Positions 4,329 to 32,330 of a stretch of DNA of 32,330 bases are shown in pieces (within the stretch, counting starts at the first letter, position 1; every line of letters starts with the position of its first letter). Location: the NCBI RefSeq assembly GCF_000520735.1, contig NZ_ASSC01000447.1, forward strand, positions 1-32,330, given 5' to 3'. The notes under the pieces are model-generated. The model made no database searches. It saw only the letters and a program-made list of their open reading frames with translations, and was not told where the DNA came from. Made by a program: the position numbers and the translations under genes. This stretch comes from Paenibacillus forsythiae T98 (GTDB taxonomy: Bacteria > Bacillota > Bacilli > Paenibacillales > Paenibacillaceae).

Positions 4329-5430
4329 GCCGAACCTCCCTTCCCAAAAGCTCGCCTTTCCTGGTCAGCAGCGCTACTTCAACCGTCACGCCGCCCCCGA
4401 TATGCTCTAGACAGCAGCGGCAGGCATACTGGCATAAGCGATCGAAAAAACTGCGCAGTCCCGCTTCAATCATCAGGTCGGCGGCCTGTGCCGCCGTGTT
4501 GCATCCCCGAATCTCGTTCTGGAGCTGTGATGAAGCCCCCGCCTCGCTGGCAACCCTCGCCAGAAACCCGAAATCGACGGATGAGCCGCCGGAATGAACC
4601 ATCATCTCGCCCTGGGCCAGCTTCGAGAATTTGCCGATCATGCCGACAAGGCTGATTGTGCTTATCCCGAGGCGCTTGGCGTGCAGCAACGAGAACCCGG
4701 CAAAATCACCCATCAGGATAAACGACTCTTCGCTGAGGTCCGGATTCATCTCCATCGCATATTTCTCGCTGCCGGCCCCTGTCGTCAGAACAACATGCGC
4801 GCTGCCGGAGGCAGCGGCCACCCGAAGGGCCTGAATTATGCTCGCCTTATACGCGGAGGTCGAGAAAGGAACGACCGTCCCCCTCGTACCCAAAATGGAA
4901 ATCCCTCCAACGATACCCAGCCGCCCGTTTAACGTCTTCCTCGCGATTTCTTCTCCGCCCGGCACGGAAATCACCACTTTCACGCCGCGGTTCATGCCAT
5001 AATCCTTCAGGACTTCCTGCACTTCCTTGCGGATCATCCGGCGGGGCACCGGATTAATCGCCGCCTGGCCTATCGGAACCGGCAGCCCCGGCTTCGTAAC
5101 ACGCCCTACCCCGTCGCCGCCGTCAAGTTCGATGCCGCTTCCGTCCGTCCATTTCGCCACAGCGACAATTCTCGCCAGGTGCGTAGCGTCCGGATCATCG
5201 CCCGCGTCCTTCATCGTGGCGCACCGCGCCGCGCCGGAGATAAGTTCGCTTTCTACTATGGTGAACGTTTGGAACCATCCGGCCGGAAGCCAGATGGTCG
5301 ATTCGGCAACCCGGGTACGGGTGACCAGCATCAGAACCGCTGCTTTCGCCGCCGCTGCCGCGCAAGCGCCTGTCGTCAATCCGTGCCGCATCTCTTTGGG
5401 CTTGTTCTTTGCTCCCGCCAAATCGCTCAT
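4321..5430 (-). CDS. cbiD: Cobalt-precorrin-5B C1-methyltransferase CbiD
   Basis: Methylates C1 in the anaerobic pathway. The 369-residue protein has the CbiD N-terminal hallmark RHGLTTGACAAAAAKAA, the DGGDGVGRVTKPGLPVPIG segment, the INPVPR motif, and the C-terminal GAGSEKYAM and GMIGKFSKLAQGEMMVHS blocks. The size is normal for the family. ATG at 5430 lies 17 bp after cbiC and has an AAGGGA-type ribosome binding site. With cbiG it marks this as the oxygen-independent, cobalt-early route. Confidence 0.95.
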   Translation of the reverse strand: MSDLAGAKNKPKEMRHGLTTGACAAAAAKAAVLMLVTRTRVAESTIWLPAGWFQTFTIVESELISGAARCATMKDAGDDPDATHLARIVAVAKWTDGSGIELDGGDGVGRVTKPGLPVPIGQAAINPVPRRMIRKEVQEVLKDYGMNRGVKVVISVPGGEEIARKTLNGRLGIVGGISILGTRGTVVPFSTSAYKASIIQALRVAAASGSAHVVLTTGAGSEKYAMEMNPDLSEESFILMGDFAGFSLLHAKRLGISTISLVGMIGKFSKLAQGEMMVHSGGSSVDFGFLARVASEAGASSQLQNEIRGCNTAAQAADLMIEAGLRSFFDRLCQYACRCCLEHIGGGVTVEVALLTRKGELLGREVRRG

Positions 5431-9955: not shown

Positions 9956-10017
9956 CGTTAATCGCCGCAATACAAGCGTTCTCCCCCTTCCTATCCTCGT
10001 AGGTCAGTCGTGCTGTT

Positions 10018-10205
10018 GAAAAAGGCAGGTCTCCTGACTTGTGGATCAGACGCAATAACCGGAATCATACTGATCCGGGTGCTTAAGCCTTCCCATTTGA
10101 CACAGTGGCTTAAGCTTGCTCTCCATTTACAGTGGCGGGACCGCGACGGACTTTCACCGTTCTTCCCTTTTAATAAACGCCTTGGCGTTTCACCTTTTTC
10201 ATCCA
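10018..10205 (-). promoter_or_regulatory. Cobalamin riboswitch controlling the cob/cbi operon
   Basis: The minus strand carries the B12 box AAGTCAGGAGACCTGCC at 10040-10024. Upstream of it are the conserved core segments GGGAAGAACGGTGAAAGTCC and GGTCCCGCCACTGTAAATGG (about 10170-10120). A perfect 9-bp stem, GCTTAAGCC with GGCTTAAGC, spans 10081-10115. The element sits between a promoter at 10244-10273 and the terminator before cobT. By analogy with the family, adenosylcobalamin binding should favour termination and switch the operon off. The outer borders are approximate. Confidence 0.93.
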
Positions 10206-10243
10206 TATGCAGTTGTAGACAAGATATGCTGACAATAAGGTTC

Positions 10244-29523: not shown

Positions 29524-30561
29524 ATGAAGTACAATTTGCTTGGCAATACGGGAGTAATGATTTCGGAAATCGGTCTGGGTACGATGACGTTTGGCGGCGG
29601 GGAGATGTGGGGCGCATTCGGTTCGCTTGACGTGAAGGAAGCGGGACGATTGGTAGATCATGCGCTGGACGCCGGCGTTAACTTCTTCGACACGGCCAAT
29701 GCCTATGCGGAAGGTCGCTCCGAGCAGATACTCGGTAAGGCCCTGAAGTCCAAACGGCATCAAGCAATCATTGCAACCAAAGTGAGAGCGCGCATGGGTC
29801 CGGGTCCCAATGACCTTGGACTGTCGCGGCTGCATATGATCCGGCAGGTAGAAGAAAGTCTCAGACGGCTTGAAACAGATTATATCGATCTGTACCAAAT
29901 TCATAATCCGGATCAATTGACCGATTGGGAGGAAACGCTTCGCGCGCTCGACGATCTGATTCGCAGCGGTAAAGTTCGCTACATCGGCTGCTCCAACATG
30001 CAAGGATGGGAAATCATGAAGACGCGCGGGATATCGGAACTCCGGGGGCTTACTGCATTCAAGAGCAGCCAATCGTATTACTCGTTGACAGCACGCGAGA
30101 TTGAACGGGAGATTATCCCTGTTCTGAACGATCAGAAGATGGGGCTAATCGTGTGGAGCCCGTTGTCGGGCGGTTTTTTGTCAGGGAAATACACACGTGA
30201 ACATCAAGGGGACCCAGATGACCGGCATAACAAGGCAGCTTTTCCTCCCGTAGATAAAGAGAAAGCATTTCGCATCCTGGATGTACTCTCGAATATTGCT
30301 GCGGAACGCGAAACCACAGTGGCCCGGATCGCTCTCGCATGGCTGCTTAATCAACAAGCGGTCTCCAGTATCATCGTTGGAGCCAGAAGTCCCGAACAGT
30401 TCAGCGACAATTTGGAGGCATCAGGTATCGTCTTGAGCGATGGAGAATTGAACCAACTGAATGAGGTTAGCCAACTTCCGATCGAATACCCTAAATGGCC
30501 TTTTCTGGAGGATAATGATTCAATCGTCAGGAAGCATACGGGCAAGGTAATTGGTATTTAA
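29524..30561 (+). CDS. Aldo/keto reductase
   Basis: NADPH-dependent carbonyl reductase of 345 residues with an AKR TIM barrel. The catalytic tetrad Asp56, Tyr61, Lys86 and His127 is visible in FFDTANAYAEG, ATKVR and LYQIHNPD. The C-terminal VARIALAWLLNQQAVSSIIVGAR is the cofactor-binding segment. The open frame begins at 29458, but ATG at 29524 has AAAGGAG and starts with the usual MKYNLLGNTG. It is divergent from sigZ; control by SigZ is possible. The substrate is unknown. Confidence 0.92.
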   Translation: MKYNLLGNTGVMISEIGLGTMTFGGGEMWGAFGSLDVKEAGRLVDHALDAGVNFFDTANAYAEGRSEQILGKALKSKRHQAIIATKVRARMGPGPNDLGLSRLHMIRQVEESLRRLETDYIDLYQIHNPDQLTDWEETLRALDDLIRSGKVRYIGCSNMQGWEIMKTRGISELRGLTAFKSSQSYYSLTAREIEREIIPVLNDQKMGLIVWSPLSGGFLSGKYTREHQGDPDDRHNKAAFPPVDKEKAFRILDVLSNIAAERETTVARIALAWLLNQQAVSSIIVGARSPEQFSDNLEASGIVLSDGELNQLNEVSQLPIEYPKWPFLEDNDSIVRKHTGKVIGI

Positions 30562-30628
30562 AGGAGACTGAATTCACTGAAAAAGTGCTTGTTGGGGCTG
30601 ATTTTTTGCGACGAATGAAACCAAAACA

Positions 30629-30659
30629 AAAGAACGGCATCTCTGCCGTTCTTTCTGTA

Positions 30660-30660
<1 letters not shown>
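30629..30660. terminator. Bidirectional terminator between the AKR gene and tRNA-Lys
   Basis: AAAGAACGGCA (30629-30639) and TGCCGTTCTTT (30644-30654), 11-bp perfect arms with a TCTC loop. T-rich tails follow on both strands, best on the minus strand after the tRNA. Confidence 0.85.
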
Positions 30661-30732
<72 letters not shown>

Positions 30733-30743
30733 ATATTAAATTA

Positions 30744-30780
30744 TGGTGGAGCCTAGGGTGATCGAACCCCTGACCTCTTG
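30744..30780 (-). pseudogene. 3' fragment of a tRNA, with CCA
   Basis: The minus strand carries GAGGTC-AGGGG-TTCGATC-ACCCT-AGGCTCC-ACCA: variable region, T arm, acceptor 3' strand and encoded CCA. The D and anticodon arms and the 5' acceptor GGAGCCT are missing. The T stem has G-A at the pair that should be the invariant G53-C61. It lies 11 bp from tRNA-Lys, like neighbouring genes in a tRNA cluster, so it seems a broken relic of one. Confidence 0.7.
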
Positions 30781-30906
30781 GCGGTTTGTGTCGGGTCTAT
30801 GCTCGCGGATTGGTTGGTGATGGCCGTCAGGAAAACCGTTGACATTGGAGGCCGCCATTGACATTTATCGTCTAGGCGAGTGTTGGCGGCCGTCGTTGGT
30901 AGTGCA
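30781..30906. other. Unassigned DNA with an inverted repeat
   Basis: No gene is recognised. The stretch holds GGCCGCCA (30850-30857) and TGGCGGCC (30884-30891), perfect arms 26 nt apart, and two TTGACATT repeats (about 30839 and 30858). It separates the tRNA relic from the group II intron fragment. Confidence 0.5.
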
Positions 30907-31218
30907 CTCAGTGATTGCCCGCTGCTTTTCCTACTTGACGTCTGTGAGACCTCCCCGGGTAAGAGCGATAACTTTCCCCTCATCTATCTGCCACATTTAC
31001 ATGGTGAGATTCGGGCAGTATTCGACTTCGCTTTGTCTGGCAAGCTCGTCCGTCCCATCATGCCTTGTATGTGGTTTCTGTTCGTCAGACCGAGGGTTTG
31101 CCTCCGGCTTCCTTCAGATTCTGCCTCACGGCAGACACCCTTGCCTTTGGCTAACAGTTCCTACTGCCAAGCCTGTAGCGGACTTTCACCGCCAAGTTAT
31201 CGCCCATGCCGGGCGCAC
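30907..31218 (-). mobile_element. Group II intron, 5' domain I fragment (no reverse transcriptase)
   Basis: The minus strand from 31218 begins GTGCGCCCGGCATGGGCG, the characteristic 5' end of bacterial group II introns. It continues with recognisable domain I sequence: GGTGAAAGTCCGCTACAGGC, GTAGGAACTGTTAGCC, AATCTGAAGGAAGCCGGAGG, GACGAACAGAAACC, GCATGATGGGACGGACGAGC, and GGGGAGGTCTCACAGACG. Resemblance ends near 30907 (CACTGAG). No intron-encoded protein, domain V or domain VI is present downstream, so this is a dead fragment. It starts 10 nt from the base of the NRPS terminator stem. Confidence 0.85.
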
Positions 31219-31228
31219 ATGAAAACAA

Positions 31229-31256
31229 GGAGCAGACTGCCGCGGCAATCTGCTCC
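31229..31256 (-). terminator. Terminator of the NRPS gene
   Basis: GGAGCAGA (31229-31236) and TCTGCTCC (31249-31256) form an 8-bp stem with a GC-rich loop that can pair further; TTGTTTT follows on the minus strand. It lies 60 bp past the NRPS stop. Confidence 0.85.
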
Positions 31257-31316
31257 CTGTTTATTCCGCTATAAAGTCTCCCGTTTTCTACGCCTGTCTG
31301 CTTCCTGGGCCGGTTT

Positions 31317-32330
31317 TTATTTCTCGGTATGTTTCCGATGAATTGGAGCCCTCTCCGTTTGTTTGATTATTCCTTTTACAATGCGCTGAATGAGCTTCAC
31401 GTTTTTCTCGACATATCCAGGCGCCAGCAACTCTAAATGCTCTCCGATCACTTCATATTCCGCATAATGTTTCTGTGTCGCCTGTTTCCATAACAAAATA
31501 TCGTTGTCTGAAGCTCTTCCCACCTCCGAACCTTCCGCCACTAAACCGTGGATCTCAGCTTGGACTGCTCCTGTGTTAATAAGTTCACTCAAAAACATAT
31601 GATAAGCATGTATTTTATTTATTACTTTATCTCTGGTAATAGGGACAGTTAAAACTTGTTTATACGGCTCTGGGGCATGCTTCAATAAAAGGCGATCAAT
31701 GATTTGATCATCTATTTCTACTTCTGCATTCTTCATCTCCCAATTTTTCTTCTTGGAGTCGATCATAATGATGTCGGATACCTCGTATCCTCGTTCTTCC
31801 ATCGCTTTTGCTACTTCAAATGCAAGGTTTCCTCCCGCTGAATAGCCGATAAACACATAAGGCGCCTTCTCTTGAACACTTACAATGGCATCCACGTATT
31901 GATCTAGCATTTCTGAGCGATTGCGAGCATTCTCTATAAATTCGAGAGCGTAGACCACGCAGTGGTTTTCAAGATGTTTCGCCATTTCGGCAAACGCAAT
32001 TCCATATCCCAGTATTGGAGGAAAACAGAAAACATTCATCATTCCATTTTCGTTTAATTTCATGATGTTGTAGCTGTTCTTCCGTTCAAACTGCTGAAAC
32101 TTGAGTTTCAACAATTCCTCGGTCATTTTTTCGATTGTTTGACTTTCAAGCACGATACGCATGGGAACGTCGACTTCCAACTTTACATGAATCTTTTGAA
32201 TCAACTGCAGCACCTTCAAGGAGTGTCCCCCGATTTCGAAAAAGTTGTCTTTCACACCAACTTTCGAAAGACCGAGTATCTCTTGCCAAATCTGCACCAG
32301 CGCTTCTTCCACCGGCGTGCGGGCGGCGAC
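31317..32330 (-). CDS. Non-ribosomal peptide synthetase, C-terminal carrier-thioesterase part (cut by window edge)
   Basis: The frame is open to the window edge, so only the end of the gene is present (337 codons). It starts in the linker VAARTPVEEALVQIWQ, followed by a peptidyl carrier domain with the phosphopantetheine Ser in DNFFEIGGHSLK. A type I thioesterase follows: VFCFPPILGYG, nucleophile Ser in GYSAGGNLAFEVA, and the C-terminal His in GEHLELL. The thioesterase releases the peptide, so this is the last module of an assembly line. The adenylation and condensation domains lie beyond 32330, so the product cannot be named. Base composition is more A/T-rich than the cob operon. Confidence 0.93.
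   Translation of the reverse strand, partial: VAARTPVEEALVQIWQEILGLSKVGVKDNFFEIGGHSLKVLQLIQKIHVKLEVDVPMRIVLESQTIEKMTEELLKLKFQQFERKNSYNIMKLNENGMMNVFCFPPILGYGIAFAEMAKHLENHCVVYALEFIENARNRSEMLDQYVDAIVSVQEKAPYVFIGYSAGGNLAFEVAKAMEERGYEVSDIIMIDSKKKNWEMKNAEVEIDDQIIDRLLLKHAPEPYKQVLTVPITRDKVINKIHAYHMFLSELINTGAVQAEIHGLVAEGSEVGRASDNDILLWKQATQKHYAEYEVIGEHLELLAPGYVEKNVKLIQRIVKGIIKQTERAPIHRKHTEK

What the first reader, a model, noticed from the sequence alone, without database searches (positions are those of the whole stretch)
30907..31256. Truncated group II intron placed directly after the NRPS terminator
The GTGCGCC 5' boundary is 10 nt from the terminator stem base, as for introns that home to terminator hairpins (class IIC behaviour). 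Only about 310 nt of domain I remain, without the reverse transcriptase or domains V/VI. It is misread as several ORFs on the plus strand. The class is not settled here.
Basis: partly seen in the sequence, partly recalled or inferred. Interest (0 to 1): 0.6.

Follow-up and report, generated by a model that had tools for sequence, protein, structure and literature searches.

The report
Relic of a terminator-targeting group II intron
A broken, 293-base front end of a self-splicing mobile intron sits just behind a hairpin at the end of a peptide-synthetase gene in a bacterium that looks like a Paenibacillus; it is a dead copy of a well-known kind of mobile element.

Summary
On the minus strand, 31218 down to 30926 (293 nt) is the 5' part of a class IIC group II intron: Rfam RF02001 matches 30964-31135 at 154.5 bits, and introns of about 1,906 nt in relatives match it at 93-95%, one of them shown to encode a GsI-IIC-like reverse transcriptase. 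The GTGCGCC boundary is at 31218, 10 nt from the base of the hairpin behind an NRPS gene. Corrections: domain I plus the start of what I read as domain II remain. The hairpin is also a degenerate copy of a dispersed Paenibacillus palindromic repeat, and uninterrupted copies part from the window where the intron begins. EBS1 is at 31036-31039: across 49 copies it is among the most variable sites and pairs with each copy's own exon; the window's copy pairs 2 of 4, a sister copy with the same exon end 4 of 4, but 7 other copies are also at 2 of 4. The 3' part is lost in an A-run; then follow 148 nt of unknown origin and a cut tRNA-Ala. A second 97% copy breaks in the same A-run. No intact copy was found in this draft assembly. 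Dead copy of a known kind; low interest.

The parts
30926..31218 (-). 5' fragment (nt 1-293) of a class IIC group II intron; 5' end GTGCGCC at 31218
   Evidence: 94.5% over 293 nt to the copy in G022 and to one in G004 that has an N gap further on; 97% to own-genome copy C730:4033-4321
30964..31135 (-). RF02001 group-II-D1D4-3 core match (model 1-170 of 170)
   Evidence: 154.5 bits
31036..31039 (-). EBS1 (CAGA, intron nt 180-183); pairs with 2 of 4 of its own IBS1
31219..31222 (-). IBS1 (TCAT), last 4 nt of the 5' exon
   Evidence: sister copy C730 with the same exon end pairs 4 of 4
31229..31256 (-). GC-rich terminator-like hairpin, 12 pairs, 10 nt before the intron
   Evidence: fold -30.8 kcal/mol for 31219-31266; not reported by the simple terminator scan, in my reading because the stem extends into the T tract
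31219..31285 (-). left and central part of a dispersed Paenibacillus palindromic repeat that the intron interrupts after TTTTCAT
31317..32312 (-). 3' end of an NRPS gene (PCP and thioesterase domains)
   Evidence: PF00550 and PF00975
30778..30925 (-). 148-nt stretch of unknown origin directly after the break
   Evidence: only short weak matches
30744..30777 (-). 3' part (34 nt) of a tRNA-Ala gene
   Evidence: matches the intact tRNA-Ala at own contig C334:4892-4967
30659..30733 (-). tRNA-Lys (CTT), a diverged copy of C334:4806-4881

Best explanation
A class IIC group II intron reverse-spliced in, minus-strand sense, right behind a terminator-like hairpin downstream of an NRPS gene. The hairpin belongs to a dispersed palindromic repeat, and its TCAT lies where IBS1 lies. 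The intron later lost everything from an A-run behind domain I onwards (rest of DII, DIII, the RT-bearing DIV, DV, DVI and the 3' exon) through a rearrangement that left 148 nt of unknown DNA and a cut tRNA-Ala next to it. Without DV and DVI the relic should neither splice nor move. Shown by calls: intron identity, boundary, position, loss of the 3' part, EBS1 location and its 2-of-4 pairing. Inferred: class of this copy from its relatives, domain names, order of events, and that this copy is drifting.
For: RF02001 match. In 17 relatives' loci fetched, 17 of 18 main alignments cover 276-314 nt at 90-95%; the other covers 162 nt. Of five loci compared end to end, three are about 1,906 nt long (L049, L051, L054), L059 is about 1,569 nt with an internal deletion, and L048 has an N gap. 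L049 and L051 have ORFs of 466 and 490 aa; the L049 protein has RVT_1 and GIIM domains and is closest to GsI-IIC RT. By eye, all 15 5' flanks listed show a hairpin just before the intron. In 49 of 52 copies parsed, EBS1 pairs with the copy's own last 4 exon bases: mean 3.18 of 4 Watson-Crick over 26 genome/EBS1 groups, against 1.59 (sd 0.17) in shuffles, 0 of 20,000 reaching it; without the window and taking each of 18 EBS1 types once, 3.25 against 1.46 (sd 0.21), 0 of 20,000. The window differs from all 48 others at intron nt 196 (G, all others C) and nt 215. Of 11 repeat copies aligned, 5 read TCAT and run on where the window turns into intron.
Against: The genome is an 895-contig draft, so the break at an A-run could be an assembly join. 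Two own-genome copies breaking in the same A-run is more than I would expect from independent random deletions. The window's 2-of-4 pairing is not by itself a sign of decay: 7 of the 48 other copies parsed are also at 2 of 4. No occupied and empty allele of this NRPS locus was found, so the insertion is shown by repeat copies elsewhere. The simple terminator scan did not report the hairpin.
Confidence: 0.92

Rival explanations
1. The truncation is an assembly artefact: a full-length intron is present in the cell, and the draft assembly joined wrong sequence at the homopolymer A-run.
For: Both own-genome 5' fragments end in the same A-run, which is 6-15 A long in most relatives read, L053 and L058 lacking it; 895 contigs; the 148 nt after it have only short weak matches.
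Against: The stretch leads into a tRNA pair like that at C334; C730 leads into a transposase-family ORF some 400 nt on; no RT of this family was found in the 91.92%-complete assembly except a 43-aa C-terminal piece in C708, whereas a collapsed repeat would normally leave such a contig.
Confidence: 0.12
2. Half of a split, trans-splicing intron whose 3' half lies elsewhere.
For: A roughly 205-nt 3' end fragment of the same family lies at C708:6015-6226.
Against: The middle of the intron (reference nt 294 to about 1,700) is in neither piece; the DNA behind the C708 piece does not continue the host repeat; EBS1 pairs only 2 of 4 with the exon.
Confidence: 0.02
3. The stub has been taken over as a 3' extension, small RNA or second terminator for the NRPS transcript.
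For: 3'-truncated stubs recur in relatives: 8 of 18 partial-match loci that I picked from the list have no further intron sequence in the 1.0-3.0 kb fetched behind them, and no N there in the first 1.5 kb; two of the 8 share flanks and so one insertion.
Against: The window's copy has a private change at a column invariant in the 48 others; no sigma-70-like site in 30560-31340 (0 found, 0.5 expected); stubs differ in length (65-228 nt).
Confidence: 0.04

Closest known systems
Bacterial class C / IIC group II introns (inserted behind intrinsic terminators)
   Same: Position behind a hairpin, GTGCG start, short EBS1-IBS1 pairing in the family, a relative with a GsI-IIC-like RT. Passages read: PMC4424553, PMC3522654, PMC7161350.
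   Different: Only nt 1-293 are left; the target hairpin is part of a dispersed repeat; EBS1 pairs 2 of 4.
GsI-IIC (Geobacillus stearothermophilus, host name recalled) group II intron RT, PDB 6ar1
   Same: Best solved relative of the L049 RT (E 7.1e-115).
   Different: The window holds no RT at all.
EBS-defined families of Thermosynechococcus elongatus introns
   Same: Intron copies in one genome fall into families by EBS, most at largely complementary IBS sites (PMC2882425, passages); the Paenibacillus copies do likewise.
   Different: Those pair through EBS1, 2 and 3 (IIB, as the passage says); here a 4-nt EBS1 was tested, in introns behind hairpins.

Membership tests
Group II intron, class IIC | GTGYG-type 5' end and domain I fold of a group II intron | tested here: met
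   GTGCGCC at 31218; RF02001 at 154.5 bits, model 1-170
Group II intron, class IIC | Insertion just behind an intrinsic-terminator hairpin | tested here: met
   12-pair GC-rich stem ending 10 nt before the boundary; the simple terminator scan itself did not report it
Group II intron, class IIC | EBS1 pairs with IBS1 in the 5' exon | tested here: inconclusive
   The site pairs in the family (24 copies at 4, 17 at 3, 8 at 2 of 4); the window's copy is one of the 8
Group II intron, class IIC | Domains V and VI | tested here: not met
   RF00029 has no match in the window and homology ends at 30926: a fragment derived from the family, not an intact member
Group II intron, class IIC | Intron-encoded RT of class C | tested here: not met
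   Absent here; present in relatives L049 and L051
Group II intron, class IIC | Self-splicing / retromobility | not testable with these tools
   Not expected for this copy, which lacks DV/DVI
Intrinsic terminator | GC-rich hairpin followed by T tract behind a gene | tested here: met
   31229-31256, tail TTGTTTTCAT, 60 nt behind the NRPS stop; termination itself not tested

The most novel reading that the evidence does not exclude
Paenibacillus IIC introns spread by switching a 4-nt EBS1 'address' between otherwise similar copies, so that each copy's EBS1 records the hairpin tail it entered; the window's copy is a fossil that used a dispersed palindromic repeat as a landing pad, and 5' stubs left behind hairpins are a recurrent end state because deletions that spare the upstream terminator are tolerated.
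Probability: 0.27. Interest if true: 0.4.

Novelty: new member of a known kind. Interest (0 to 1): 0.2.

Why it matters
As an annotation result it settles a 293-nt stretch behind an NRPS that would otherwise be called as spurious ORFs. The by-product is of more use: 49 related copies show statistically which 4 nt go with the insertion site, which could guide retargeting of IIC introns.

Tried and rejected
Looked for a full-length or RT-bearing copy in the own genome: none of this family found; RT matches at C545 and C659 are 35-41% identical, other introns. Tested whether the 3' fragment at C708 is the missing half of the window copy: the DNA behind it does not continue the repeat, so no link. 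Looked for the origin of 30778-30925: searches of 60 and 100 genomes gave only short matches (27 nt at 93%, E 4.5e-4; 21 of 21 nt, E 0.001; 30 nt at 87%, E 0.006, each for one genome), too weak to use; in plasmids the best E was 2. Looked for the same NRPS end in 100 genomes of the genus (99 besides the own): within the gene the longest match was 74 nt; otherwise the hairpin repeat, in 14 of the 99 (at most 4 candidates scored per genome). In genome contigs the loci matching over most of the query are P. elgii, P. tyrfis (two) and P. caseinilyticus at 40-61%; these four of the 52 loci show no intron of this family and no tRNA in the DNA held. An excess of 5' stubs over 3' stubs looked possible, but at most 7 candidates were scored per genome and some partial matches are N gaps or contig ends, so I make no claim of asymmetry. 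At first I took the window's 2-of-4 EBS1 pairing as a sign of decay; a recount shows 7 other copies at 2 of 4, so I withdraw that as evidence and lowered the novel case from 0.30 to 0.27. Domain II: CUCACAG and CUGUGAG are exact complements in the L049 sequence, but the minimum-energy fold does not pair them; the domain name rests on recalled class C architecture.

Papers: only passages were read; only listings with starts of abstracts were seen. In these listings I saw no paper on EBS1 variation in Paenibacillus IIC introns or on this repeat; the library is open-access only, so this is weak.

Full report
What is there. On the minus strand, behind an NRPS gene that ends in PCP and thioesterase domains (31317-32312), comes a hairpin (31229-31256, 12 pairs of which one is G-T, loop of 4), the tail TTGTTTTCAT, and then GTGCGCC at 31218. 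Rfam RF02001 matches 30964-31135 at 154.5 bits. In relatives the same DNA is the start of introns of about 1,906 nt; homology to them ends at 30926. The window has no RF00029 (DV) match and no RT.

Organism. No name is given. G033, 'same genus', has a contig C2 with the length and match position of Paenibacillus sonchi plasmid NZ_CP068596.1, so the genus is inferred to be Paenibacillus.

Class. Relatives L049 and L051 carry ORFs of 466 and 490 aa; the former has RVT_1 and GIIM domains and is closest to GsI-IIC RT, 6ar1, E 7.1e-115. With the place behind a hairpin this is class IIC; reviews describe class C introns as inserting behind terminators and using only EBS1 and EBS3 (passages).

How much is left. 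293 nt. In the fold of the longer relative, nt 14-23 pair with nt 247-256, which I take to close domain I. Behind it come CUCACAG (nt 271-277), an A-run, and in the relative CUGUGAG; they are exact complements, although the minimum-energy fold does not pair them, and I read them as domain II from recalled class C architecture. The break lies in the A-run, 6-15 A long in most relatives read (L053 and L058 lack it). The own-genome copy C730:4033 breaks in the same A-run (homology ends at 4330-4332); a transposase-family ORF starts some 400 nt on. The two copies have different 5' flanks save the last 7 nt, so they are separate insertions.

The landing site. The hairpin plus tail is a degenerate copy of a dispersed repeat. 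With window 31219-32312 as query, the hairpin end matched in the own genome and in 14 of 99 other Paenibacillus genomes. An uninterrupted copy lies in the own genome at C727:11056-11144, 80% to the repeat of a relative. Of 11 copies aligned, 5 read TCAT at the window's exon end (L183, L184, L185, L188, L012), 1 CCAT, 2 TCGT and 3 differ more; the five run on into AAGCTAACGGGCAG-like sequence. The window leaves the repeat at the intron boundary, which is separate evidence for 31218.

Exon pairing. I parsed 49 of 52 copies. The 4 nt at intron positions 180-183 pair with the last 4 exon bases: 3.33 of 4 Watson-Crick over all copies; offsets 0, 2 and 3 give 0.73, 0.43 and 1.61. Over 26 genome/EBS1 groups it is 3.18, against 1.59 (sd 0.17) in shuffles, 0 of 20,000 reaching it. 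Without the window, and with each of 18 EBS1 types taken once, it is 3.25 against 1.46 (sd 0.21), 0 of 20,000. Positions 182, 181, 180 and 183 rank 1st, 4th, 7th and 9th in variability in the alignment of 296 columns. In G034 all 7 copies parsed have TGTG before the intron and a matching EBS1. In G022 two EBS1 types occur: both copies of one sit behind TTAA (4 of 4), and of the four copies of the other three sit behind TGTA (4 of 4) and one behind GCTA (2 of 4). Against: the groups are related and not independent; 24 copies pair at 4, 17 at 3 and 8 at 2 of 4, the window being one of the 8; and L049 and L140, of the two G022 types, differ at 11 places and not at EBS1 alone, so no special mutator follows. 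The sister copy C730 with the same exon end pairs 4 of 4. The window has a private base at nt 196, where all 48 others agree, and at nt 215. Drift after death is my reading; the poor pairing alone does not show it.

Beyond the break. 30778-30925 has only short weak matches. Then come 34 nt of the 3' part of tRNA-Ala and a tRNA-Lys that ARAGORN and Rfam still recognise, 123 of 129 nt identical to the pair at C334. What rearrangement made this I cannot tell; a decayed integration site in the tRNA, or a deletion with filler, are both open.

Other stubs. Of 18 partial-match loci that I picked from the list, 8 are 5' stubs with no later intron sequence in the stretch fetched (L115, L116, L118, L119, L121, L123, L125, L126; L118 and L119 share flanks), 4 run into N gaps (L111-L114), 1 ends at a contig end (L117) and 5 resume the intron further on (L120, L122, L124, L127, L128). 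So 3'-truncated stubs are not unique to this window.

Verdict. It is a dead fragment of a known class of retroelement, ordinary in kind; the EBS1 statistics and the repeat landing site are the only parts that go beyond annotation.

Noticed in passing
window 30659-30777: Both the tRNA-Ala remnant and the tRNA-Lys carry a C-to-A change at what looks like the same T-stem position, relative to the C334 pair (by eye); chance, sequencing error or shared decay not settled.
   Followed up: no
L183, L185, L184, L012 (C727:11056-11144): Dispersed Paenibacillus repeat: pieces of the type AAGCTAACGGGAAACGATAGTT and AAGCTAACGGGCAGGATAGTT around a GC-rich palindrome. No name seen in the listings of two paper searches.
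   Followed up: partly
window 10007-10212, minus: Cobalamin riboswitch at 104.6 bits.
   Followed up: no
own genome C659, C545, C90, C708: Four RF00029 group II intron matches. C708 is a 3' piece of this family; RTs at C545 and C659 are only 35-41% identical to it, so other group II introns are present in the genome.
   Followed up: partly
C334:3517-4646 (L082): ORFs that look by eye like a helix-turn-helix regulator and a metalloprotease lie next to the intact tRNA-Ala/tRNA-Lys pair, perhaps part of an integrated element.
   Followed up: no
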